Below, piece after piece: positions 1 through 53,314 of a DNA stretch of 53,314 nt. The position numbers were made by a program, and so were the translations under genes. The DNA lies in IMG/VR virus record IMGVR_UViG_3300033148_005268, positions 1-53,314 of that record; one strand, given 5' to 3'. The notes below the pieces were generated by a model, which was not told the origin of the DNA, made no database searches, and worked only from the letters and a program-made list of their open reading frames with translations. The stretch is from a virus. Each line of letters starts with the position of its first letter. Positions within the stretch are counted from its first letter, which is position 1.

Positions 1-114
1 AGGGTGAAGTTTCGTGTAAGTGGCGAGTTCGGCACAAAGATCATATACGGTACGAACCAGGCCAATGTCCGGGCCGGAAGCGGTGGCGATACCGCTACAA
101 CATCTGAGGTCCGG
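1..114. repeat. Circular junction repeat, left copy
   Basis: Identical to the last 114 bases of the window. Because it lies within one continuous reading frame that crosses the window ends, it is best explained as redundancy of a circular or circularly permuted assembly rather than a functional terminal repeat. Unique length is therefore 53,200 bp. Confidence 0.95.
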
Positions 115-2850
115 GCGAGCGTGAACGAGGACTTCTGGGTCACGCACGACTTAACGCTTAGCAACTGGACTTCATCGACATACTATCTGAATTTCCTGGT
201 TGAGCAGGACCGCGACGGCACGCCCAGCTATAGTGGTAACGCGAATGTCTACACGCTTGAAACCTCGCTCGCGGCAAACAATAACCATCCGATTGCCACA
301 GCTTTGCCGCAGTATGGCCCTGTGCCAAGCAGTAGTGATGATTTCAAGGTCGCTACTAGCGGGGACATCCACGGCGGCGAGGACGCCAGCGACGAGTACA
401 CGTTCACTGGTACGGACTGCATACTCAACCATCAGATTTACCATTCAATCAGCGGCAAGAGCGTTGATTTGTTTTGTATGCAGGGCGATGAACACTCACG
501 GGATACATCGAACCTAAAAAAGTATCGTCGAGCCAGTAAGCGACGACGCGGGTACAACTGCGATGCCCGTTATTACCAGGAGCAGATTCTGTCGAAGCTG
601 CCCATAATGCGCTGGCTCTCGGACCACGACCACGCAGGCGGCAATAATTGCCATAAGTGCGGATCAAGTAATTATCCAAGCGTTAATTACTTGCCGGTGT
701 ACAATGCTACTGATGGAGCACGGGAATGCACGCCATTTCCTGACTTTACAATCCCGGATGACATTCAGCAATACGGCACTGGCGGGGCGGCTACGTATGT
801 GCAAGACGATAATCCGCCGGAGTTTTCCATCTCTTACACGGTCACGTCCGGGGACCCTGGCGATGACGATAACCCGACTGGTATCAATGCTGGTGTGAGC
901 GTAACCTGGGACAGCGGAGCGAGCAGTGGCACAGCGGTTGCCATTGACGACGCAAACAACAGGATGATCATAGAGTTCTCATCTGGCAGCTATCCAGCAG
1001 ACGGCGATGTCATAGTTGGCCCGACTTGGCAGGTTACGCAAAGCGGTAGCATCTCAATTCCAACTTGGAGCGTCTATGGCATTCACCCAGGCATGGTCTT
1101 TCATAGGCTTGCGGTCGTGAATTTTTCGTCTGGCAGCAATGAGCCAACGATTGGTGAAAAGATAACAGACACCACGGCGGGTGGCACGGCGATCTTGCGT
1201 GGGGTGGAGGTTACAACAGGCTCATGGGGCGCGAATAACGCGGGTGGGTGGTTCTGGGTAGAAAGCAAGACCGGTACATTCACATCAGGCAATCCGATTT
1301 CTGGCTCAATAACTGGCTCAATCGCAAATGTCGGCACAAGCGGGCACATAGCTGCTAGTCGTGGGCTTGTGACGAGCGTGTCAGACACGAAAATATATCA
1401 AGATGCCGGTAGCTTTTTGACGGGCCATAAGTGGTATCGCGTGCAGCGATTTGCACTATTCTACACCCAGACATTTGGCAATGCTTTGTTTGTCGTAATG
1501 GATGTCCGAACAAAGCGTGACCCAAATAGAACGCCCTGGGTAGATAAGCTGGACGGCACGGTCTTTGGGCCGCTTCAGGATAGCGCATATAAGGATACCG
1601 TTACAACTACAAGCGGTTGTACCACAACGAGCATCGTCTATACCGGCGATGACCCGGATATTGTGAAATGGGACGGAGTGTATGTGTCGTCGGTTTCCGG
1701 GCTTCAGTATTCGCTTGTTGAAGCGTTGGACACCACGACAAAGACAATCACGCTTTCCTGGGCGCTTGGTGCGGCGCCGGCGTCATCCGTGACAGTAGAA
1801 TTTTATGAGACCGGCGCAAGCGACCACGGCGGCGAATGGTCAGGTGGCACATGGGACACCAGCGGTTTTACTAATGAGCAAGCTGATGCGGCAAACATCA
1901 ACGCTGGCCATATCCAGCGGACGCTTGCTGAGCGAGCTATTAGAGACGCCACAGAAGATTGGCGCGTTGTCTGTGCTGAGACGCCACTGCATCATGGCGA
2001 TGCAGGAAATCAGGATAAGTGGAACGACTGTGACGGAAACTGCACATGGGTTAAGGCGAACCAGACGGCCGATTGGACGCAAGACGGCTCAAGCGATTAC
2101 TGGTATTACAATAATGCAACGCCATTCGGATCTGATCCGCCTGGCGGACTAACTCGTTCAGTGGACGGCCTCGCCGATATGATCCAAGAATATGTCGAAT
2201 GGGACACGGACGCGGCGACAACGCTTGGAACCGATTTGCGGAAATGGACCTGGAACTCATCAACGAAATACGTTTGGGTCTACGCTCCGAACGGCAACCC
2301 GGCAGGGCAGCTTGGCTCATCTCCTGGTAGCAACGAACACGACACGGCAGAATATATCAACATCTACTATCCGGAGTTCTGGAAGCGGGCTTGCACGCGA
2401 AAATACATCATAGAAAAATACGGGGGGTTTAATAGCTTCTGGTTTGGGTCAGATCACCATGTTTTCTTTGAAGATGATGCATCCCATGCTGATGACGGCT
2501 GGCCCTGCCTTGGGGCCTCGCCTCTGCACTGCCACCCGAAAAAATCCCATCAGTCAAAGGCGCAGTTTCTTGTTGACGGTGATACCGTCATTTACGAGCG
2601 CGGGGACGGCGAGGTCGGCGGCTCAACTCCTGTTATGGGCGCAGATCAGATCGGCGGTTTTGCCGTGATGGACTTCCAGAACAGCGACGACAAGGTGGTG
2701 ATAACGGGCTATGAGCGTGATGGTGGCGAGATAGTTCATAGTGGTACAAAGAGTGATTGTACGATGGAGATTATATTCAACCCTATCCTCATTGACGAGG
2801 GCTTCGAGGGCGCCGGTACGGAAGAAACCTGGACGGAGACCACGACTTAG
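1..2850 (+). CDS. Tail/fibre protein with PhoD-like metallophosphatase domain, 3' part
   Basis: This is the C-terminal 949 residues of a 1363-aa protein whose first 414 codons are at 51959-53200. The frame is open across the junction. In full numbering, a calcineurin/PhoD-type metal-binding pattern is visible: SGDIHGG (D536, H538), MQGDEH (576-579), LSDHDHAGGNN (about 621-630) and FGSDHHVFF (1232-1234), with an ALFVVMDVRTKRDP stretch between, as in PhoD phosphodiesterases. A beta-rich insertion separates the middle motifs. PhoD-family enzymes cleave phosphodiesters, including teichoic acids; I infer a virion enzyme acting on a phosphodiester-containing host surface polymer. The protein ends at an amber codon inside a jellyroll domain that continues in frame in the next gene. 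The annotated GTG at base 4 is not a real start. Confidence 0.8.
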   Translation, partial: RVKFRVSGEFGTKIIYGTNQANVRAGSGGDTATTSEVRASVNEDFWVTHDLTLSNWTSSTYYLNFLVEQDRDGTPSYSGNANVYTLETSLAANNNHPIATALPQYGPVPSSSDDFKVATSGDIHGGEDASDEYTFTGTDCILNHQIYHSISGKSVDLFCMQGDEHSRDTSNLKKYRRASKRRRGYNCDARYYQEQILSKLPIMRWLSDHDHAGGNNCHKCGSSNYPSVNYLPVYNATDGARECTPFPDFTIPDDIQQYGTGGAATYVQDDNPPEFSISYTVTSGDPGDDDNPTGINAGVSVTWDSGASSGTAVAIDDANNRMIIEFSSGSYPADGDVIVGPTWQVTQSGSISIPTWSVYGIHPGMVFHRLAVVNFSSGSNEPTIGEKITDTTAGGTAILRGVEVTTGSWGANNAGGWFWVESKTGTFTSGNPISGSITGSIANVGTSGHIAASRGLVTSVSDTKIYQDAGSFLTGHKWYRVQRFALFYTQTFGNALFVVMDVRTKRDPNRTPWVDKLDGTVFGPLQDSAYKDTVTTTSGCTTTSIVYTGDDPDIVKWDGVYVSSVSGLQYSLVEALDTTTKTITLSWALGAAPASSVTVEFYETGASDHGGEWSGGTWDTSGFTNEQADAANINAGHIQRTLAERAIRDATEDWRVVCAETPLHHGDAGNQDKWNDCDGNCTWVKANQTADWTQDGSSDYWYYNNATPFGSDPPGGLTRSVDGLADMIQEYVEWDTDAATTLGTDLRKWTWNSSTKYVWVYAPNGNPAGQLGSSPGSNEHDTAEYINIYYPEFWKRACTRKYIIEKYGGFNSFWFGSDHHVFFEDDASHADDGWPCLGASPLHCHPKKSHQSKAQFLVDGDTVIYERGDGEVGGSTPVMGADQIGGFAVMDFQNSDDKVVITGYERDGGEIVHSGTKSDCTMEIIFNPILIDEGFEGAGTEETWTETTT

Positions 2851-4116
2851 ATGGCAGGGACATTAACATACGACAACACCACCCCGACGCCGCCTGAGGG
2901 CAGCCAGTGCATGATGGCGGAGGTGACTTCGGGCTCCGCGAATGCTTATATCACACGCTCGAGGGTCAATGCCAAGACTAGTTTCGTGCATCAACATCTT
3001 TACGTCGATGCTGAAGGCCTTGCAGACACAGAAGAATTCAAGACCCTTCAGGTCCTTGACTCAAGCGACAACATAGCAGCATATATCAGGATCTATGACG
3101 ACTCCGGCACGCTGAAATACGACTTCTACTGCTACGACGGGAGCCTTACGGCAAAGGTCACAGGGCAAACACTGAGCCTTCAGACTTGGTACGAGTTCGA
3201 GTACAAGTACGACATCGACGGCGAGGCCTGGGAGCTTAGGCTTGACGGAAGCTCAGTAGATAGTGGCAGCATCGGCGGCGCAACGCGCACGCCACGCAAA
3301 GTCAGCACCGGGATCATAGGATGCACGGGCTCCGGCACGACACGGGTCTATATTGATGATGTGGTGTGGCGCACGGATAATTGGCAAAGCGCTTATGTAA
3401 CTTCGGGGTCTCTTGCCCTAAGTGTAATATCCAGCCTAAGTGATACAGCTCTTGCTTCCAGCTCTGGCAGCCTATCTCTTGCGGCCCTGCTGGCACTCTC
3501 GGAAATTGGCTTGGGCTCCACGTATGGCGCTCTTGGGCTAGGAGCGATTTCTACAACCTCACAATCGTCTCTAGCAAGCGCACTATCTTCTTTAACGCTG
3601 TCTGGCATCGCGACCGAGCAGCATATAGGAGTCGCGGATTCTGCCGGCTTATTAAGCCTACAAGCGATCGCAACTATCGCGCAGGTTGGAGCGAATGTGA
3701 TCTTGGCCTCACTAGCTTTAGGTGCATCTGCAGGACAATCGCAGCTTTCAATTGCGACGGCTGTCGGCGACACCACGCTGGCTGGAGGTCTTGGGCTCTC
3801 GAACCAAGGCACAGCGCAAACTCTCGCTACTGTTTCGATGCCAGTCAGTGCGGTAATCACGGAATCCGCAATAGCACAAGCAATAGCAGATACCTCGTTG
3901 GGTGCAATTCTGACCCAGGCCCAAACAGGCTCACTAGGCGCAATAGTCGCAGCGACCTTTGCTGCTGCGGCTCAGGCAGGTCTAATAACCTCTGCCACAA
4001 AGACAGTCACTGTAGCTACGACATTCGACGTCGGCGGCGAAAGCGTGCCGGATACGCTCCTGGATGTCGATGGCAGGCTGTATAGAAGAATCAACGATAA
4101 GTTAATTCCATTATAG
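2851..4116 (+). CDS. Jellyroll plus 20-residue-repeat fibre protein
   Basis: 421 aa in the same frame as the preceding gene, separated from it only by TAG at 2848-2850; the ATG follows immediately. Residues 1-175 are most of a LamG/concanavalin-like jellyroll ending in VYIDDVVW, the same closing motif as IYLDDICV in the N-terminal domain of the upstream protein. Residues about 185-390 are roughly ten imperfect 20-residue repeats rich in Ser, Ala, Leu and Gly (pattern SGSLxLxxIxxxSQxxLAS), probably a repetitive fibre shaft. The C-terminal 30 residues (ending RINDKLIPL) are polar. A weak GGAG lies 12 nt before the ATG, so independent or coupled initiation is possible; amber readthrough would give a 1785-aa fusion. 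Confidence 0.8.
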   Translation: MAGTLTYDNTTPTPPEGSQCMMAEVTSGSANAYITRSRVNAKTSFVHQHLYVDAEGLADTEEFKTLQVLDSSDNIAAYIRIYDDSGTLKYDFYCYDGSLTAKVTGQTLSLQTWYEFEYKYDIDGEAWELRLDGSSVDSGSIGGATRTPRKVSTGIIGCTGSGTTRVYIDDVVWRTDNWQSAYVTSGSLALSVISSLSDTALASSSGSLSLAALLALSEIGLGSTYGALGLGAISTTSQSSLASALSSLTLSGIATEQHIGVADSAGLLSLQAIATIAQVGANVILASLALGASAGQSQLSIATAVGDTTLAGGLGLSNQGTAQTLATVSMPVSAVITESAIAQAIADTSLGAILTQAQTGSLGAIVAATFAAAAQAGLITSATKTVTVATTFDVGGESVPDTLLDVDGRLYRRINDKLIPL

Positions 4117-4129
4117 GAGGACATGCAGA

Positions 4130-4693
4130 ATGCACAACGAAACTAGCGCAAGCATAGGAATGCAAGCAAGCGCAAAACGGAAAGCCACTAATGGCATGCG
4201 AGTCTTCGCAAAAGACATCTTCCATATCACTTGCCGAGACAAGTGCGGCCGTGTCAAATGGACCGACACTGTCGAGAATCTCGTAGTGAATGAGGGCTTG
4301 GACGACTTGCTGGATAAATACTTTAAGGGCTCGTCATACACCGCAGCACATTACGTGGGCCTTACTGACGGCACACCGACGGTCGCGGCTGCTGACACAA
4401 TGGCTAGCCATGCTGGGTGGTCCGAGGTTACGGCTTATGACGAAGCTAATAGGCCGTCATTTACGCCCGGTTCGGTAAGTGGTCAGTCCGTAGACAACTC
4501 AGCCTCTAAGGCCACTTTCACCATCAGCACAAACAGCACCACAATCGGCGGGTGCTTTTTGACTACTGACAACACAAAGAGCGGCACGAGTGGTACTCTC
4601 TATGGCGCAGGGGCTTTTAGTGCTGGCGATAAGACCCTTGACGACAATGACACACTTGAGGTGACCGTGACATGCACTACGTCGGCGAGCTAG
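4130..4693 (+). CDS. Tail-associated protein, unknown
   Basis: 187 aa, 13 nt after the previous gene, with a strong AGGAGGACATGCAGA ribosome site. The N-terminal third is polar (CRDKCGRVKW), followed by NLVVNEGLDDLLDKYF and a Ser/Thr/Gly-rich beta-type C-terminal half (AHYVGLTDGTPTVAAADTM). This looks like the small structural proteins often placed beside phage tail fibres, but no catalytic motif is seen. It ends in TAG, showing that amber is an ordinary stop elsewhere in this operon. The C-terminus overlaps the next gene by 22 nt. Confidence 0.75.
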   Translation: MHNETSASIGMQASAKRKATNGMRVFAKDIFHITCRDKCGRVKWTDTVENLVVNEGLDDLLDKYFKGSSYTAAHYVGLTDGTPTVAAADTMASHAGWSEVTAYDEANRPSFTPGSVSGQSVDNSASKATFTISTNSTTIGGCFLTTDNTKSGTSGTLYGAGAFSAGDKTLDDNDTLEVTVTCTTSAS

Positions 4694-4989
4694 TCCTAGC
4701 TCTAAGCTTGGTCCTCCTTGTTTGGAGCGCCAACACGGAAAGCGACCTGGCTGGCTACCGACTCTACTGGCGGCCATTCGGTGGTCATTGGGAGCAAGTC
4801 TGGCAAGGCACTAGCACGAGCGCAAGGGTTAGCGTCGATGAGGGCGAGCTGGCTGTGGGTGCCTTCGATCTTGCTGGCAACGAGAGCACGCCGAGCAACA
4901 TCGTGCGCTATTTGCGCTGCGATCTCGATGGAGACGGAGATTGCGACGGAATAGACTTGAGTCTATTTGGAAGGAGTTTTGGGAGATGA
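4672..4989 (+). CDS. Exported FN3-like protein with C-terminal dockerin-like repeat
   Basis: 105 aa; GAGG lies 10 nt before the ATG. Residues 5-19 are strongly hydrophobic (signal peptide or anchor), followed by an FN3-like domain with NTESDLAGYRLYWRP and AFDLAGNESTPSN, the usual start and end motifs of bacterial FN3 modules. The last 22 residues contain DLDGDGDCDGIDLSLFGRSF, a single dockerin/EF-hand-type calcium loop. Dockerins dock extracellular proteins on cohesins; a lone half-dockerin may only be a calcium-stabilised cap. It overlaps the next gene by ATGA, suggesting translational coupling and joint export. Confidence 0.72.
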   Translation: MHYVGELVLALSLVLLVWSANTESDLAGYRLYWRPFGGHWEQVWQGTSTSARVSVDEGELAVGAFDLAGNESTPSNIVRYLRCDLDGDGDCDGIDLSLFGRSFGR

Positions 4990-7900
4990 AAAAACTCTTG
5001 CTAATAACGCTTTGCTTCTTGCTCCTGACTAGAGTTGCGTACAGCGCAGAAAGTCTCGACGAGCTTGAAGCCAGAACATCTAGGAAATCAACAAACACGT
5101 TTTACTCTGGGGAGGACTCTGGCAACTACTATATTTGGCAGCCACAGACGGCGATATACAAAGACACCAGCACGAATCACGAGGTATGGATATGGACACA
5201 AACGAATGACAAGTCTACATTAGGAACGCGCTATTCAGCTACAGAATATAACTGGCAACCTTGGAGTGCCGACGGAAAGAGAATCGCCTTTTATCAGGAT
5301 GTTGATACTAACGCATATACAAGATCAGGGCATCCGTGGTTTGTCGCGCGTTCTGACGGTTCATATTGGCGCCCAGCACACGAGTCCGCTGCACGGGCAA
5401 GTACGATGAGATTCTACTACGATTGGTCTCCCATTATCCAGGACGTCGCGTATGCAACTGGTGCAAACTACGATGGCAACACGGGGCTTGACGAAAACGC
5501 TGTTTATCGTGAGGTACATACAGACACCTCGATAACATCGACTTTGATAATAGATATGATTCCTGGAGATACTACGACAGAGCGGCTCGGCGGACTTAAG
5601 GATAGAATTACTGGCGACGGGTTGTACCTTGTTGAAGGCAACTATCTAGAGGACGAACCGTACTATGTGGTTCAGGTCGAGCCTGCAGGATCTAGGCAAC
5701 TAAAAGTAAGCTGGGATCTACCAGCCCTTGATACATATTGGTACAGTACAGTAAACCCAGCCGATGGCCACGCACACGATGAAGGTATTGTAGGCAACTC
5801 CGCACATGGCTATGTAATGTATTTTATGCCTTCCGGTGCTTCTGTATGGTGGAGAATACACCTTTGGGGATCGGATGGCAATGCGCCGAATCACGTGCAG
5901 GACCATACATCTTCTGGCGCACCTGGATACTACTCGTGGTGGAATGATGACGGTCTTGGGTGGGATTGTCCTACCGCTCAAGCCGATAAAGAAGTCCAGG
6001 TGGTTGGTGATGAGTACGGGCAATCTCAAGGAAACTATCCGGCGTTTACAACTGACGCGAGGCTGAGCCATAGTGCATTCGACAGATGGGGGACCCATGT
6101 TGTTTACAGCGACGTAGAAGCATCGCCAATAGGTCCAGCTTGCTTAGATATTGGCAGCTACACAAGAGTAGGCTACAACTCGAATCCTGGCGGAAATCAG
6201 TATTCGTCATACACTGGCTGGAGTGATTATTTCGTGAGCGCCGCAGGGGCTCCTGCTGCTGTTATGGTGGCGACGAAGTATAACTCAACAACTGCTGCAG
6301 ACCACATAACGGTTGGCGAAAGTCACACCAGCACGACAGGTGACTTCCAAAACCCAGGCCAATCACCTGACGGCACCAAGATGGTGTTCAGAACAGATTG
6401 GCTGCAACCCACCTCTGGCAATGCGGACTTGCTGGTGGGTGTTGTGTACTATCCGTATCCACCAGAAATAACGCAGTGTTCTGCTACTGGCGGCACTGTA
6501 ACAACAAGGTTCGACTGGCGTCTTGATCAAGCAAATCCGCGCGGTTATACTACCAGGGGCTGGCCTGATGAAGATGACGATGATCCTCCTCCGCCGCGTG
6601 AAATCGAAAAATTCAGACTATGGCGTTCTTCTGATAAGTCAACGTGGGTGCCAATCGGTACAGTTGATCACAGCATATTCTCCAGGTACGATTTTTCAGA
6701 TGGAACATGGGATGGAAATAGTTACTGGGAGATTACCGATACCCCAGGAAACGGCACTTGGTACTATGCCATAACATCAGTTGAGTGGTCTGGATTGGAG
6801 AGCCGCACATTGAGCAACATTTACTCAATTACTGTCTCTGGCGGCTCGGGCACAGGCTCGCAGGACACTGCATATCCATCTAGCCCCGGGGACCTCGACG
6901 ACATCTCGACATCAGACTTCTATACGTCATTCTCGTCAAGCTATCCAGAGCTGATAAGATATTATAATGTCTACGCAGAGGACGGCTCTGCACCTACGGT
7001 TTCCCAGACGAACAGAATTGCGTCAATATCTGTAAACGCTTGCTCTGATGGATCGTGCTCATGGGTTGATTGGCTTGGAAACACTGGCGGGACTACTCAA
7101 TATGTTGTTACGGCAGTTGACACACAGGGGAATGAGAGTGCTTCAGATTATGTTACTAACCAAGCATACACGCATAAAAAATCTCCTGCTACTGCTGATG
7201 GGCAATACACTATTGAGTGGGATGACATGTCTGCAGCTGGATCAGCGAGCGGGGCAACGTATTACGTTTGTGAAGGCGGAACAGGCGATGGCTCCAGTGC
7301 AGCACAATGTATGGACGATTCTAGTATTTCTTATGATGGCAGCGATACGTATCTACTAAAACGAGGCGACACATTCTGGGGCTCGCAATATTTTTATTGC
7401 ACAACCAACAATGAAACTTGGAGCACTTATGGCTCCGGCGATAGGCCGATTATTACAAGCCGGAAACAGGTAACTGGCTCATGGACAGACGACGGTGCTG
7501 GTAATTATTACATAGACGTTGGTGCCGGCCCCAGTAATTTCTATGCTTCTCCAGCTGGCACAACCTGGGCGGCAGAAGAAACGTATCATGGATCTTCGAC
7601 AACGGACCCAGATGACGGAAAATGGTCATATGTCGGAACGATCATCTATTACGACCCGTCAGATTCAGATCCGGTTCCTGGCTCAGGCGTGTTTCAGTAT
7701 ACACCCGAAGCTTACAACAGGGGAATGAAGTTGACAGGAACGGGCGGCTCGGTCACTGGCATCCGATTTGCTTACTGTGGGATTCACGGTGCTTGGGTTG
7801 ACGGCGAAGCCGGCGTAGCGGCTTCTGCCGACTTTACTGATTGCTATTTTGACCACAACGGTCAGACCACAGTAAGCAAATCGGGGAACGCTATGGGCAA

Positions 7901-8888
7901 CGGCTTATGCTATGAAGAAAAAGCAAGCGGGATCGTCTCAAACTGTATAGCAGAATACAATGAAGATTTTGGGATTAACTGTGAAGAAAACGACGGTGAC
8001 GCGAATAACTACCCATCTTTAATAGTGACCAACTCCACATCCAGATATAACAAAGACACAGGCTTTGTTTGTCAAGGTGAGACAGATGGGCTTGAAACAG
8101 AGATGTCGTATTTATCTCTGACCAACTGCGTTTCTCATGACAATGGACAAAGTGCTGGCCTGAGCGGTCATGGGGTTAAGTTCTTTTGGGGCTATGGAGA
8201 CATTTCAGGCTGTCTCATATATAATAACCATGAGGCTGGCATCTATCTTCAGCGTTGTGAATCTACTACGCTTGAAACGACAATAGAGAACTGCATTATT
8301 TTTGACAACAACCAAGGCTCAAACGCAGACGCAGACGATACTTCTGCGATTACGATCTGGGGCACATATGAACCGACAATGAATATTTATAACAATACCT
8401 TTTACGGTCAAGCTAGGGGATTCAGGAGTGGCGGAACAGCGACAGTGGCATACGTGCTTAACTTCAAGAATAATATATCTGTCGCCCCAACGCTAGCGTT
8501 TGACTTCGATAACCATGACTTGAAGGCTGGCTCTAGTATAGATACCAATTGTTATTGGGATTCTGATGGTGCTGGCGGAAATATAATTGCATATGATCTT
8601 GATGGCATAGGTGGGACTTACACAACGGCACAAATCAGTACATGGAACGCACTTGATGCTATGATTGGTACGGACATTTCTTCCAACCCCCTCTTCATCT
8701 CCAGCTCGCCGAGTCGGGCCTGGCAGTTCAACATAAAATACAAGAGTCCGTGTAGGAGCGCTGGAACGGACCTATCTGGTACATTTACGACAGACTATTA
8801 TGGTACACACCGCCCGATTGGGAGCGGGTGGGATATTGGCGCGATTGAGTGGACGCTGATGCGTTCGCCGCTTGGACGATTTGATTAG
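4986..8888 (+). CDS. Secreted beta-propeller / FN3 / parallel beta-helix protein
   Basis: 1300 aa from ATG 4986 (AAGGAG 9 nt upstream; an upstream in-frame ATG lacks a site). Residues 1-20 (KKLLLITLCFLLLTRVAYS) form a clear Sec signal peptide. Residues about 40-500 carry TolB/WD40-like blades (WSADGKRIAF, GQSPDGTKMVF). Residues about 500-760 contain two FN3-like modules (WYYAITSVEWSGLESRTLSN; VVTAVDTQGNES). Residues about 770-1270 are a right-handed parallel beta-helix with repeated NxxxxYN/NCxxxDN turns, ending in the common GSGWDIGAIEW cap. Beta-helices often bind or cleave polysaccharides. A signal peptide on a gene in a virion operon is unusual; it may act on the host surface rather than in the particle. 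Confidence 0.8.
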   Translation: MKKLLLITLCFLLLTRVAYSAESLDELEARTSRKSTNTFYSGEDSGNYYIWQPQTAIYKDTSTNHEVWIWTQTNDKSTLGTRYSATEYNWQPWSADGKRIAFYQDVDTNAYTRSGHPWFVARSDGSYWRPAHESAARASTMRFYYDWSPIIQDVAYATGANYDGNTGLDENAVYREVHTDTSITSTLIIDMIPGDTTTERLGGLKDRITGDGLYLVEGNYLEDEPYYVVQVEPAGSRQLKVSWDLPALDTYWYSTVNPADGHAHDEGIVGNSAHGYVMYFMPSGASVWWRIHLWGSDGNAPNHVQDHTSSGAPGYYSWWNDDGLGWDCPTAQADKEVQVVGDEYGQSQGNYPAFTTDARLSHSAFDRWGTHVVYSDVEASPIGPACLDIGSYTRVGYNSNPGGNQYSSYTGWSDYFVSAAGAPAAVMVATKYNSTTAADHITVGESHTSTTGDFQNPGQSPDGTKMVFRTDWLQPTSGNADLLVGVVYYPYPPEITQCSATGGTVTTRFDWRLDQANPRGYTTRGWPDEDDDDPPPPREIEKFRLWRSSDKSTWVPIGTVDHSIFSRYDFSDGTWDGNSYWEITDTPGNGTWYYAITSVEWSGLESRTLSNIYSITVSGGSGTGSQDTAYPSSPGDLDDISTSDFYTSFSSSYPELIRYYNVYAEDGSAPTVSQTNRIASISVNACSDGSCSWVDWLGNTGGTTQYVVTAVDTQGNESASDYVTNQAYTHKKSPATADGQYTIEWDDMSAAGSASGATYYVCEGGTGDGSSAAQCMDDSSISYDGSDTYLLKRGDTFWGSQYFYCTTNNETWSTYGSGDRPIITSRKQVTGSWTDDGAGNYYIDVGAGPSNFYASPAGTTWAAEETYHGSSTTDPDDGKWSYVGTIIYYDPSDSDPVPGSGVFQYTPEAYNRGMKLTGTGGSVTGIRFAYCGIHGAWVDGEAGVAASADFTDCYFDHNGQTTVSKSGNAMGNGLCYEEKASGIVSNCIAEYNEDFGINCEENDGDANNYPSLIVTNSTSRYNKDTGFVCQGETDGLETEMSYLSLTNCVSHDNGQSAGLSGHGVKFFWGYGDISGCLIYNNHEAGIYLQRCESTTLETTIENCIIFDNNQGSNADADDTSAITIWGTYEPTMNIYNNTFYGQARGFRSGGTATVAYVLNFKNNISVAPTLAFDFDNHDLKAGSSIDTNCYWDSDGAGGNIIAYDLDGIGGTYTTAQISTWNALDAMIGTDISSNPLFISSSPSRAWQFNIKYKSPCRSAGTDLSGTFTTDYYGTHRPIGSGWDIGAIEWTLMRSPLGRFD

Positions 8889-51958: not shown

Positions 51959-53314
51959 ATGACGGTCTCGCGCGAGATCCTAAACGCTGTTAATTTCCAG
52001 CCGTCTGCGGACTGGACGATCCCGGATGCGCTGAATAATCTTGTCTATGAGTCATTCGATTCTGATGACTACGATGATTGCAAGAAAGGCAGCATCACGT
52101 TTTCGCAGCAAGGATCACCATCTCCAAACACTGCATCTGATCACACCTACCATGGTGATTATGTTTGCCTGTGCAATAATTCTGCTGCGGAGTTCGTAAA
52201 GTGGGACTTCACGGCTAGGACCCCCCGATGCTACAAGGTCCGGTTGCGTTTCTACCTGAAGATTCCGGCGGCAGCAAACTGGCCAAATAGACGCATCTGC
52301 TCCTTGCAGTACTACTACGCTGGCAACAAAAATGCCTTTGAGATCGCAGGAACAACTACAGCAGGCGAGCTGAAATTCAAGTGGGCAACAGGCGCGAGCA
52401 CTTTTGAGAACACCAAGTATACTATTTCATACGATACTTGGTATAGATGTGAACTTGTGATCTATAACGACACCTCATCAGCAAGCGGCACGGTGTATTT
52501 TTATACTTCTACTGGGTCAACCGAGTTGCTCACAGGGTCTGGTTATAGTGCAACGAACCTAAACGCTTCTTTGAGCAACGTTACATACGCTGAATATTTA
52601 GGAATATTGAAGTTAGGGTTGCTTGACACTGGCGATTCAGACGATCAAATTTACCTTGACGACATCTGTGTCCGCGATGCTACGAACGACTACGACGCCA
52701 CAATAGGCGATTGGAACACAAATGCGGGTACGCATATGACTGACCGCATAGGTGTTGGGTCTGGCACGACAGAGGCCTTTGCGACGACGAGTGCTTCACA
52801 AGACCTGGAGTTTGTGTTCGAAAAGCCGAGCATCACAGACCCACTTGCTGTGCGGCTTTGGGTTTACGGGCAGGCGAGCACGGCAAACTCAAACCGTTGT
52901 GTCAACCTCTGCCGTTGGGTGTCTGGGGCAAGTTACGGTTGGGGTAAGGTCCAGTTGCGTGACAGTTACGAGTACCACCACGTGCTCTGGGAGCATGAGC
53001 CAGGAACGACAGAGGACGTTGCCTGGACGCAAGCAAAGCTAGAAACGTTGACTGCCGGAGTGCAGTCATCAGGATCAAACGAAAGCGAGAACCCAGGCGG
53101 CTATATTGCTGAGTGCTATGCGGAGGTTATAAAGGGCAATAGCGATGATGGGCACATGACTCACGGGCCTATCGTGTGGGCGCTTTCTACGACGCAAGCC
53201 AGGGTGAAGTTTCGTGTAAGTGGCGAGTTCGGCACAAAGATCATATACGGTACGAACCAGGCCAATGTCCGGGCCGGAAGCGGTGGCGATACCGCTACAA
53301 CATCTGAGGTCCGG
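51959..53314 (+). CDS. Tail/fibre protein with PhoD-like domain, 5' part
   Basis: First 414 codons of the 1363-aa protein that continues at base 1. ATG 51959 has AGGAGAGG 5-9 nt upstream. Residues about 28-240 are a LamG-like jellyroll opening with VYESFDSDDYDD and closing with DDQIYLDDICVRDA; residues about 245-500 form a second beta-rich domain (TIGDWNTNAGTHMTDRIGVG) leading into the phosphatase domain. The N-terminal jellyroll is paralogous to the one that spans the amber codon near 2850. Bases 53201-53314 duplicate bases 1-114. Confidence 0.85.
   Translation, partial: MTVSREILNAVNFQPSADWTIPDALNNLVYESFDSDDYDDCKKGSITFSQQGSPSPNTASDHTYHGDYVCLCNNSAAEFVKWDFTARTPRCYKVRLRFYLKIPAAANWPNRRICSLQYYYAGNKNAFEIAGTTTAGELKFKWATGASTFENTKYTISYDTWYRCELVIYNDTSSASGTVYFYTSTGSTELLTGSGYSATNLNASLSNVTYAEYLGILKLGLLDTGDSDDQIYLDDICVRDATNDYDATIGDWNTNAGTHMTDRIGVGSGTTEAFATTSASQDLEFVFEKPSITDPLAVRLWVYGQASTANSNRCVNLCRWVSGASYGWGKVQLRDSYEYHHVLWEHEPGTTEDVAWTQAKLETLTAGVQSSGSNESENPGGYIAECYAEVIKGNSDDGHMTHGPIVWALSTTQARVKFRVSGEFGTKIIYGTNQANVRAGSGGDTATTSEVR
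53201..53314. repeat. Circular junction repeat, right copy
   Basis: Exact copy of bases 1-114; the reading frame from 51959 enters it in the same phase as the frame at base 1, confirming circular continuity. Confidence 0.95.

What the first reader, a model, noticed from the sequence alone, without database searches (positions are those of the whole stretch)
364..2466. PhoD-like phosphodiesterase domain in a phage tail protein
Motifs GDIHGG, MQGDEH, SDHDHAGGNN and FGSDHHVFF, in order, match a calcineurin/PhoD-type dinuclear metal site in a protein that also carries jellyroll binding domains and lies among tail fibres. Virion depolymerases are usually polysaccharide lyases or hydrolases; a metallophosphodiesterase would attack phosphodiester-linked surface polymers or teichoic-like glycans.
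Basis: partly seen in the sequence, partly recalled or inferred. Interest (0 to 1): 0.78.

Follow-up and report, generated by a model that had tools for sequence, protein, structure and literature searches.

The report
Divergent PhoD-like enzyme in phage tail
A phage tail-region protein carries a very diverged version of a known bacterial enzyme fold (PhoD, which cuts phosphodiester bonds), split by large insertions and with part of its metal site changed; other phages already have such enzymes in their tail genes, so this is an unusual variant rather than a new kind of system.

Summary
The four motifs are in the stated order in one reading frame and belong to a real PhoD/purple-acid-phosphatase-like metallophosphoesterase domain. 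Pfam, NCBIfam, PHROGs and PDB sequence searches miss the domain. It is recovered by a profile of 34 PhoD-like proteins (E 4e-6 against 3,977 sequences; best decoy 0.44), by hhalign (E 7e-6), and by an unguided alignment that lines up the metal-site motifs across three large insertions. An alignment-guided AlphaFold model matches B. subtilis PhoD best (Z 21) but has low confidence. The upstream neighbour resembles tail-fibre proteins. PhoD-like proteins in phage tail modules are already known (66-72 records; Thermobifida phage P1312 ORF22, 2015, with the same teichoic-acid proposal). What is unusual is the three insertions, loss of the Tyr iron ligand invariant in all relatives examined, and a calcineurin-type DxH at motif 1. 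Enzymatic activity, metals, substrate and virion location are inferred. Verdict: new, highly diverged variant of a known kind.

The parts
51959..53314 (+). N-terminal 452 aa of the 1363-aa protein; beta-rich by reading, no signal peptide seen; start preceded by AGGAGAG. The last 114 nt repeat window 1-114
   Evidence: no Pfam match; no phage match
115..2850 (+). rest of the same gene (C-terminal 911 aa) up to the TAG stop
1..333 (+). PhoD_N-like Ig/fibronectin-type domain in front of the catalytic core (begins at about 53141 across the junction)
   Evidence: aligns with the N-terminal domain of 34 relatives; VIA-align range begins at model residue 19; PF16655 not hit directly
361..378 (+). motif 1, GDIHGG: D122 at the position of PhoD Cys180 (Asp in the second PhoD subfamily); H124 gives a calcineurin-type DxH
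   Evidence: ligand numbering PMC4223295
478..501 (+). motif 2, MQGDEHSR: D163 = PhoD D207; S166 replaces the Tyr invariant in 34 of 34 relatives
619..648 (+). motif 3, SDHDHAGGNN: S207 replaces PhoD D265, D208 = D266, N215/N216 candidate Ca-site Asn
   Evidence: Ser here also in Streptomyces and Microbacterium phage proteins
736..1452 (+). insertion 1 (about 240 aa) inside the catalytic core; beta-strand-rich by reading; no counterpart in the relatives at this position
   Evidence: weak tblastn to virion proteins of other phages, E 0.7-7
1453..1620 (+). core strand and helix FYTQTFGNALFVVMDVRTKRDPN...TVFGPLQ, with D501, R503 and Q526 invariant
1621..2022 (+). insertion 2 (about 100-120 aa; borders approximate) followed by a core segment ending DKW (W674 invariant)
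2023..2373 (+). insertion 3 (about 115 aa)
   Evidence: MAFFT places its borders loosely; borders are my reading
2443..2469 (+). motif 4, FGSDHHVFF: D818 = PhoD D436, H820 = the GDxH His; followed by DDGWPCLGASPLHC, matching GGWPVLLGGSLDSS in phage relatives
49393..50433 (+). tail-region neighbour upstream: matches putative tail fibre proteins of Roseobacter, Pelagibacter and Puniceispirillum podophages
   Evidence: tblastn E 2e-20
4130..4693 (+). downstream neighbour with tail-fibre-type PHROG matches
   Evidence: phrog_8123 E 2e-34, phrog_4176 tail fiber E 0.02

Best explanation
A 1363-aa protein of the tail-fibre region of a podovirus-like phage carries a PhoD/purple-acid-phosphatase-like metallophosphoesterase domain behind an Ig-type PhoD_N-like domain. 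The core is interrupted by three large insertions and its metal-1 site is altered: Asp at the Cys/Asp position, Ser for the iron-binding Tyr, and a new DxH His. Most likely it is a virion enzyme that hydrolyses phosphodiester bonds in a phosphate-linked surface polymer of the host (phosphate-linked capsule or O-chain, or teichoic-type glycan) to reach the cell, with the N-terminal and inserted beta-domains binding that polymer. Shown here by computation: homology, motif collinearity, the residue changes and the gene neighbourhood. Inferred: active metal site, phosphodiesterase activity, substrate, virion location. My confidence is about 0.95 for PhoD-like ancestry, 0.75 for a virion/tail protein, and 0.5 for active surface-polymer cleavage.
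For: Profiles: 34-relative HMM E 4.1e-6 against best decoy 0.44; 8-phage HMM E 2.6e-6; hhalign 84.7%, E 6.6e-6. MAFFT lines up the metal-site motifs across the insertions; 12 columns are invariant in all 35 sequences. The C-terminal extension after motif 4 matches phage relatives. Alignment-guided AlphaFold: core blocks pLDDT 55-80; best PDB match PhoD 2yeq Z 21.0 over 373 residues, then purple acid phosphatases. Tail-fibre-like neighbours. Precedents in tail modules: P1312 ORF22, prophage L047. A3Wally's PhoD protein shares its N-terminal domain with phage glycerophosphodiester phosphodiesterases and a minor tail protein. Virion glycerophosphodiesterases that attack teichoic acid are established (Ld17, cited in PMC10194240). 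B. subtilis PhoD is a phosphodiesterase proposed to act on teichoic acid (PMC4223295). A related phage with the same large virion protein lacks the domain in the 10 kb searched, as expected of a host-specific module.
Against: Two positions whose equivalents matter in B. subtilis PhoD are changed (the Tyr iron ligand to Ser; D265 to Ser; D265A abolished PhoD activity on pNPP), so the domain could be inactive or bind other metals. No family library recognises it. The AlphaFold model is low in confidence overall (mean pLDDT 46.9) and was guided by PhoD sequences, so it is not independent. No virion proteomics. The host is unknown; terminase and portal resemble those of phages of Gram-negative bacteria, where teichoic acid proper is unlikely.
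Confidence: 0.55

Rival explanations
1. The domain is a catalytically dead PhoD fold kept as a binding or scaffold module of the tail fibre.
For: Loss of the Tyr that is invariant in 34 of 34 relatives and of the Asp265 equivalent; three insertions in the core; 11 of 31 near-invariant positions changed. D265A inactivates B. subtilis PhoD.
Against: D122, D163, H165, D208, D210, D818 and H820 are all retained; Ser at the D265 position is shared with Streptomyces and Microbacterium phage proteins; the gained DxH could replace the Tyr ligand.
Confidence: 0.25
2. A phosphate-scavenging alkaline phosphatase (auxiliary metabolic gene) made in the infected cell, not a virion part.
For: Bacterial PhoD works in phosphate acquisition; some phage copies lie outside tail modules, e.g. 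Streptomyces phage Paradiddles among tRNA genes.
Against: No signal peptide seen at the start of the protein; large N-terminal beta-rich region; tail-fibre-like neighbours on both sides.
Confidence: 0.08
3. A nuclease or superinfection-exclusion enzyme acting on DNA, as the P1312 authors suggested as one option for ORF22.
For: Metallophosphoesterases include Mre11-type nucleases, which appear lower in the fold list (Z about 11); suggestion in PMC4569894.
Against: The best relatives by sequence and fold are PhoD and purple acid phosphatases, with an Ig N-terminal domain.
Confidence: 0.06
4. The motif resemblance is chance and there is no PhoD-like domain.
For: Pfam PhoD and Metallophos find nothing even at E 10 in this record.
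Against: Profile, hhalign and collinear alignment results far outside shuffles and unrelated ORFs.
Confidence: 0.04

Closest known systems
Thermobifida phage P1312 ORF22 'phosphodiesterase' (1096 aa) and its PHROG family 24476
   Same: PhoD-like core with PhoD_N, Asp at motif 1 (AAGDAG), encoded right after tape measure and tail genes, extra carbohydrate-binding-type domain; DVRxxRDPN stretch nearly the same as in the window
   Different: Recognised by Pfam (E 4e-14); keeps the Tyr and the DD of motif 3; compact core without the three insertions; Gram-positive host
PhoD-like 'purple acid phosphatase/phosphoesterase' proteins of Microbacterium and Streptomyces phages (Alleb, A3Wally, Paradiddles)
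   Same: Ser at the first Asp of motif 3 (SDTDSAGGN, SDNDFCGSN against SDHDHAGGNN); C-terminal stretch after motif 4 alike; extra N-terminal domains
   Different: Keep the Tyr of motif 2 and Cys at motif 1; compact core; pairwise BLAST does not reach the window protein
Bacillus subtilis PhoD (2yeq)
   Same: Best fold match (Z 21); positions of D207, D266, D436 and H438 kept; PhoD_N plus catalytic domain
   Different: Cys180 is Asp, iron-binding Tyr is Ser, D265 is Ser; insertions; Pfam PhoD model does not match
Phage virion glycerophosphodiester phosphodiesterases (e.g. Ld17 baseplate enzyme, enterococcal tail GDPD)
   Same: Proposed job: cutting phosphodiester-linked surface glycans from the virion
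   Different: Unrelated fold; biochemically shown for Ld17 (literature), not for this protein
Enterococcus phage Idefix virion protein with calcineurin-like phosphoesterase domain (A0A1M4NET6)
   Same: Annotated virion protein of a podophage with a metallophosphoesterase domain; weak fold hit
   Different: E 1.1 only; annotation not verified here; different phage group and host

Membership tests
PhoD (Pfam PF09423) | match to the Pfam model above its cut-off | tested here: not met
   0 families at E 1; no match at E 10 in the record
PhoD (Pfam PF09423) | collinear sequence homology to PhoD-like proteins over the core | tested here: met
PhoD (Pfam PF09423) | Cys, or Asp in the second subfamily, iron ligand at motif 1 | tested here: met
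   D122; Asp in 7 of 34 relatives, Cys in 27
PhoD (Pfam PF09423) | tyrosinate iron ligand after the GD of motif 2 | tested here: not met
   S166; Tyr in 34 of 34 relatives
PhoD (Pfam PF09423) | calcium-site Asp pair D265/D266 | tested here: not met
   S207 and D208; only the second Asp is kept
PhoD (Pfam PF09423) | calcium-site Asn271/Asn272 | tested here: inconclusive
   N215/N216 present but one residue further along; register uncertain
PhoD (Pfam PF09423) | D436 and H438 (GDxH) at motif 4 | tested here: met
   D818 and H820, invariant in all 35
PhoD (Pfam PF09423) | PhoD fold (Ig domain plus double beta-sheet sandwich) | tested here: inconclusive
   2yeq is the best match, Z 21.0, but model pLDDT 46.9 and guided by PhoD sequences
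PhoD (Pfam PF09423) | Fe3+ plus two Ca2+ and phosphodiesterase activity | not testable with these tools
   needs purified protein
Phage tail PhoD-like proteins (PHROG 24476/13624/25497) | PHROG profile match | tested here: not met
   0 families at E 1
Phage tail PhoD-like proteins (PHROG 24476/13624/25497) | encoded among tail genes with extra virion or carbohydrate-binding domains | tested here: met
   tail-fibre-like neighbours; long N-terminal region
Classical calcineurin-like phosphoesterase (PF00149) | Pfam match | tested here: not met
   no match at E 10
Classical calcineurin-like phosphoesterase (PF00149) | DxH at motif 1 | tested here: met
   D122-I-H124; no other of the 35 sequences has it

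The most novel reading that the evidence does not exclude
A phage virion phosphodiesterase in which a PhoD core has exchanged its tyrosinate-iron site for a calcineurin-type DxH metal site and taken up three virion beta-domains into the catalytic core as a substrate-gripping lid, used by a phage of a Gram-negative-type lineage to depolymerise a phosphodiester-linked capsule or O-chain.
Probability: 0.22. Interest if true: 0.6.

Novelty: new variant of a known kind. Interest (0 to 1): 0.4.

Why it matters
If active, it would widen the enzymes known on virions beyond glycosidases and lyases to a metallophosphoesterase with an altered metal centre. It also shows that phage PhoD-like domains run far beyond what Pfam and PHROGs detect, so their number in phages is underestimated. 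The finding that actinophages put PhoD-like and GDPD enzymes behind the same N-terminal domain points to a common role as phosphodiester-cutting surface depolymerases that can be tested in cultured phages.

Tried and rejected
Pfam, NCBIfam, PHROGs and PDB sequence searches with the window protein: nothing. Close relatives by exact peptides in IMG/VR and genome contigs: none confirmed. DNA patterns for SDHD..GNN (none), GSDHHVFF (one chance match on the wrong strand) and SDxDxAGGN (29 chance matches). AlphaFold on the single sequence: useless, pLDDT 32. Splitting relatives into fragments for the alignment failed; E-INS-i alignment with full-length phage proteins misplaced the N-terminal half; L-INS-i on the cores worked. 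BFVD fold search: no significant match. Genome-wide stop-codon recoding as a reason for the TAG at 2848: rejected, TAG ends many late genes normally. Chance motif matches: rejected.

Full report
WHAT WAS CHECKED. The finding claims a PhoD-type metallophosphoesterase domain at 364-2466 in a phage tail protein. All four motifs are in frame +1 of one long ORF. The window is a whole virus record of 53,314 bp whose first 114 bp repeat exactly at its end. Residue numbers below are those of window:1-2847 (949 aa, P0001); add 414 for the joined protein.

IS IT REAL. Family libraries see nothing: Pfam at E 1, PHROGs at E 1, NCBIfam, PDB sequences, and the Pfam PhoD and Metallophos models find nothing in this record at E 10 although they work in control genomes. 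The bridge was a tblastn hit at E 4 to 'alkaline phosphatase D' of Nostoc phage YongM, covering motifs 2 and 3. YongM's protein is a clear PhoD (PF09423 E 8e-25; 2yeq E 1e-14). A profile of eight phage PhoD-like proteins then scored the window protein E 2.6e-6, against 0.25 for the best other ORF and 0.88 for the best of 200 shuffles. hhalign gave 84.7%, E 6.6e-6. With 34 relatives from IMG/VR and genome contigs, a profile that excluded the window scored it E 4.1e-6 in 3,977 sequences, best decoy 0.44. These E-values are for small, directed searches, not for a whole database.

THE ALIGNMENT. MAFFT L-INS-i of the window protein with the 34 cores puts the motifs into the conserved columns across three insertions, in several variants of the input. 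Invariant in all 35: L90, G162, D163, H165, D208, D210, D501, R503, Q526, W674, D818, H820. Of 31 positions conserved in at least 32 of the 34 relatives the window keeps 20. The stretch after motif 4 (DDGWPCLGASPLHC) also matches phage relatives (GGWPVLLGGSLDSS). The core is interrupted by about 240, 100-120 and 115 residues not present in any relative aligned; their borders are approximate.

THE METAL SITE. In B. subtilis PhoD the metals are Fe3+ and two Ca2+; variants C180A, D265A, N271A, N272A and D436A were inactive, and D207A and D266A drastically reduced; the iron has a Tyr ligand; a second PhoD subfamily has Asp for Cys180 (PMC4223295). The window has Asp at the Cys180 position (D122), as 7 of 34 relatives do, including P1312-type proteins; D163 for D207; Ser (S166) for the Tyr that is present in 34 of 34 relatives and in all eight annotated phage proteins; Ser (S207) for D265, shared with Streptomyces and Microbacterium phage proteins; D208 for D266; N215/N216 near the Asn pair but shifted by one residue; D818 and H820 at motif 4. 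It also has a His two residues after D122. DxH is the classical motif 1 of calcineurin-like enzymes, and no other sequence in the alignment has it. Knowledge of the superfamily (not a test here) says that in calcineurin-like enzymes this His holds the metal that Tyr helps to hold in purple acid phosphatases, so the change reads as a swap of one metal-1 arrangement for another. That is an inference from sequence.

STRUCTURE. AlphaFold on the single sequence failed (pLDDT 32). With the 35-row alignment the core blocks reached pLDDT 55-80, the insertions stayed below 50, mean 46.9, pTM 0.53. VIA-align ranks PhoD 2yeq first (Z 21.0, 373 residues, rmsd 4.5), then purple acid phosphatases at about 20, other metallophosphoesterases at 11-16. 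Foldseek alone puts purple acid phosphatases in its first four places but without significance (best E 0.016). Because the alignment consisted of PhoD-like proteins this agrees with homology but does not independently prove it.

NEIGHBOURHOOD. Upstream lies a protein matching putative tail fibres of Roseobacter, Pelagibacter and Puniceispirillum podophages (E 2e-20), downstream one with tail-fibre-type PHROG matches. The portal and capsid are recognisable; portal relatives are P22-like podovirus portals of Rhizobium and Vibrio phages among others, and the terminase is about 45% identical to those of phages of Pseudomonas and enterobacteria. A Gram-negative host is therefore likelier than a Gram-positive one, but no host was established. 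A distantly related phage contig (L093, 50% identity over part of the 1859-aa virion protein) has no such domain in the 10 kb downstream, as expected of a variable host-recognition module.

PRECEDENT. PhoD-like proteins occur in 66-72 phage records (the second count includes a few that share only the N-terminal domain): cyanophages YongM, Elbi and Dfl-JY23, Streptomyces, Microbacterium and Thermobifida phages. In P1312 the gene follows the tape measure and a tail protein and has a CBM_4_9-like domain (Pfam); its authors proposed in 2015 that it might hydrolyse teichoic acid (PMC4569894). In the prophage L047 it follows tape measure, minor tail and structural genes, and its C-terminus matches a minor tail protein PHROG. 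In Microbacterium phage A3Wally the N-terminal 220 residues of the PhoD-like protein are about 50% identical to those of proteins annotated glycerophosphodiester phosphodiesterase in other phages and 38% to a minor tail protein. Two unrelated phosphodiesterase folds behind one N-terminal domain is, I think, the best available hint to function. Phage baseplate glycerophosphodiesterases acting on teichoic acid are established (Ld17, cited in PMC10194240).

VERDICT. This protein fails the Pfam test and two ligand tests for PhoD proper, so it should be called a PhoD-like variant that may work like a PhoD, not a PhoD. The unusual parts are the insertions and the altered metal site, for which an inactive domain is a live rival (about 25%).

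Noticed in passing
window 1-114 and 53201-53314: Exact 114-bp direct terminal repeat; the record is a circular map of 53,200 bp and the gene studied crosses its ends.
   Followed up: yes
window 2848-2850, ORF 2851-4116: The stop TAG is followed at once by an in-frame ATG opening a 421-aa ORF, and the sequence on either side (DEGFEGAGTEETWTETTT / MAGTLTYDNTTPTPPEGSQ) reads like one beta-sandwich domain. Read-through, coupled restart or a split gene cannot be told apart; other late genes use TAG as a normal stop.
   Followed up: partly
window 4672-4989: 105-aa ORF with hydrophobic start, fibronectin-like middle and a C-terminal CDLDGDGDCDGIDLSLFGRSFGR that looks like half a dockerin calcium-binding repeat.
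   Followed up: no
window 4986-8888: 1300-aa protein with an apparent signal peptide (MKKLLLITLCFLLLTRVAYSA) and a right-handed beta-helix (Pfam PF13229 E 4e-8), odd for a tail-region phage protein.
   Followed up: no
L012:4197-6191 and L092:4001-6421: Microbacterium phages place a PhoD-like enzyme or a glycerophosphodiester phosphodiesterase behind the same N-terminal domain (about 50% identity), i.e. enzyme exchange on a shared base.
   Followed up: partly
L013-L041: PhoD-like proteins with GDLHY and WDDHD[FY] motifs are frequent in Verrucomicrobiota, Planctomycetes and Bacteroidota genomes as free-standing proteins of 420-600 aa.
   Followed up: no
window 19607-19681 (-): ARAGORN calls one odd tRNA with a four-base anticodon gcaa; possibly a degenerate tRNA or a false call.
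   Followed up: no
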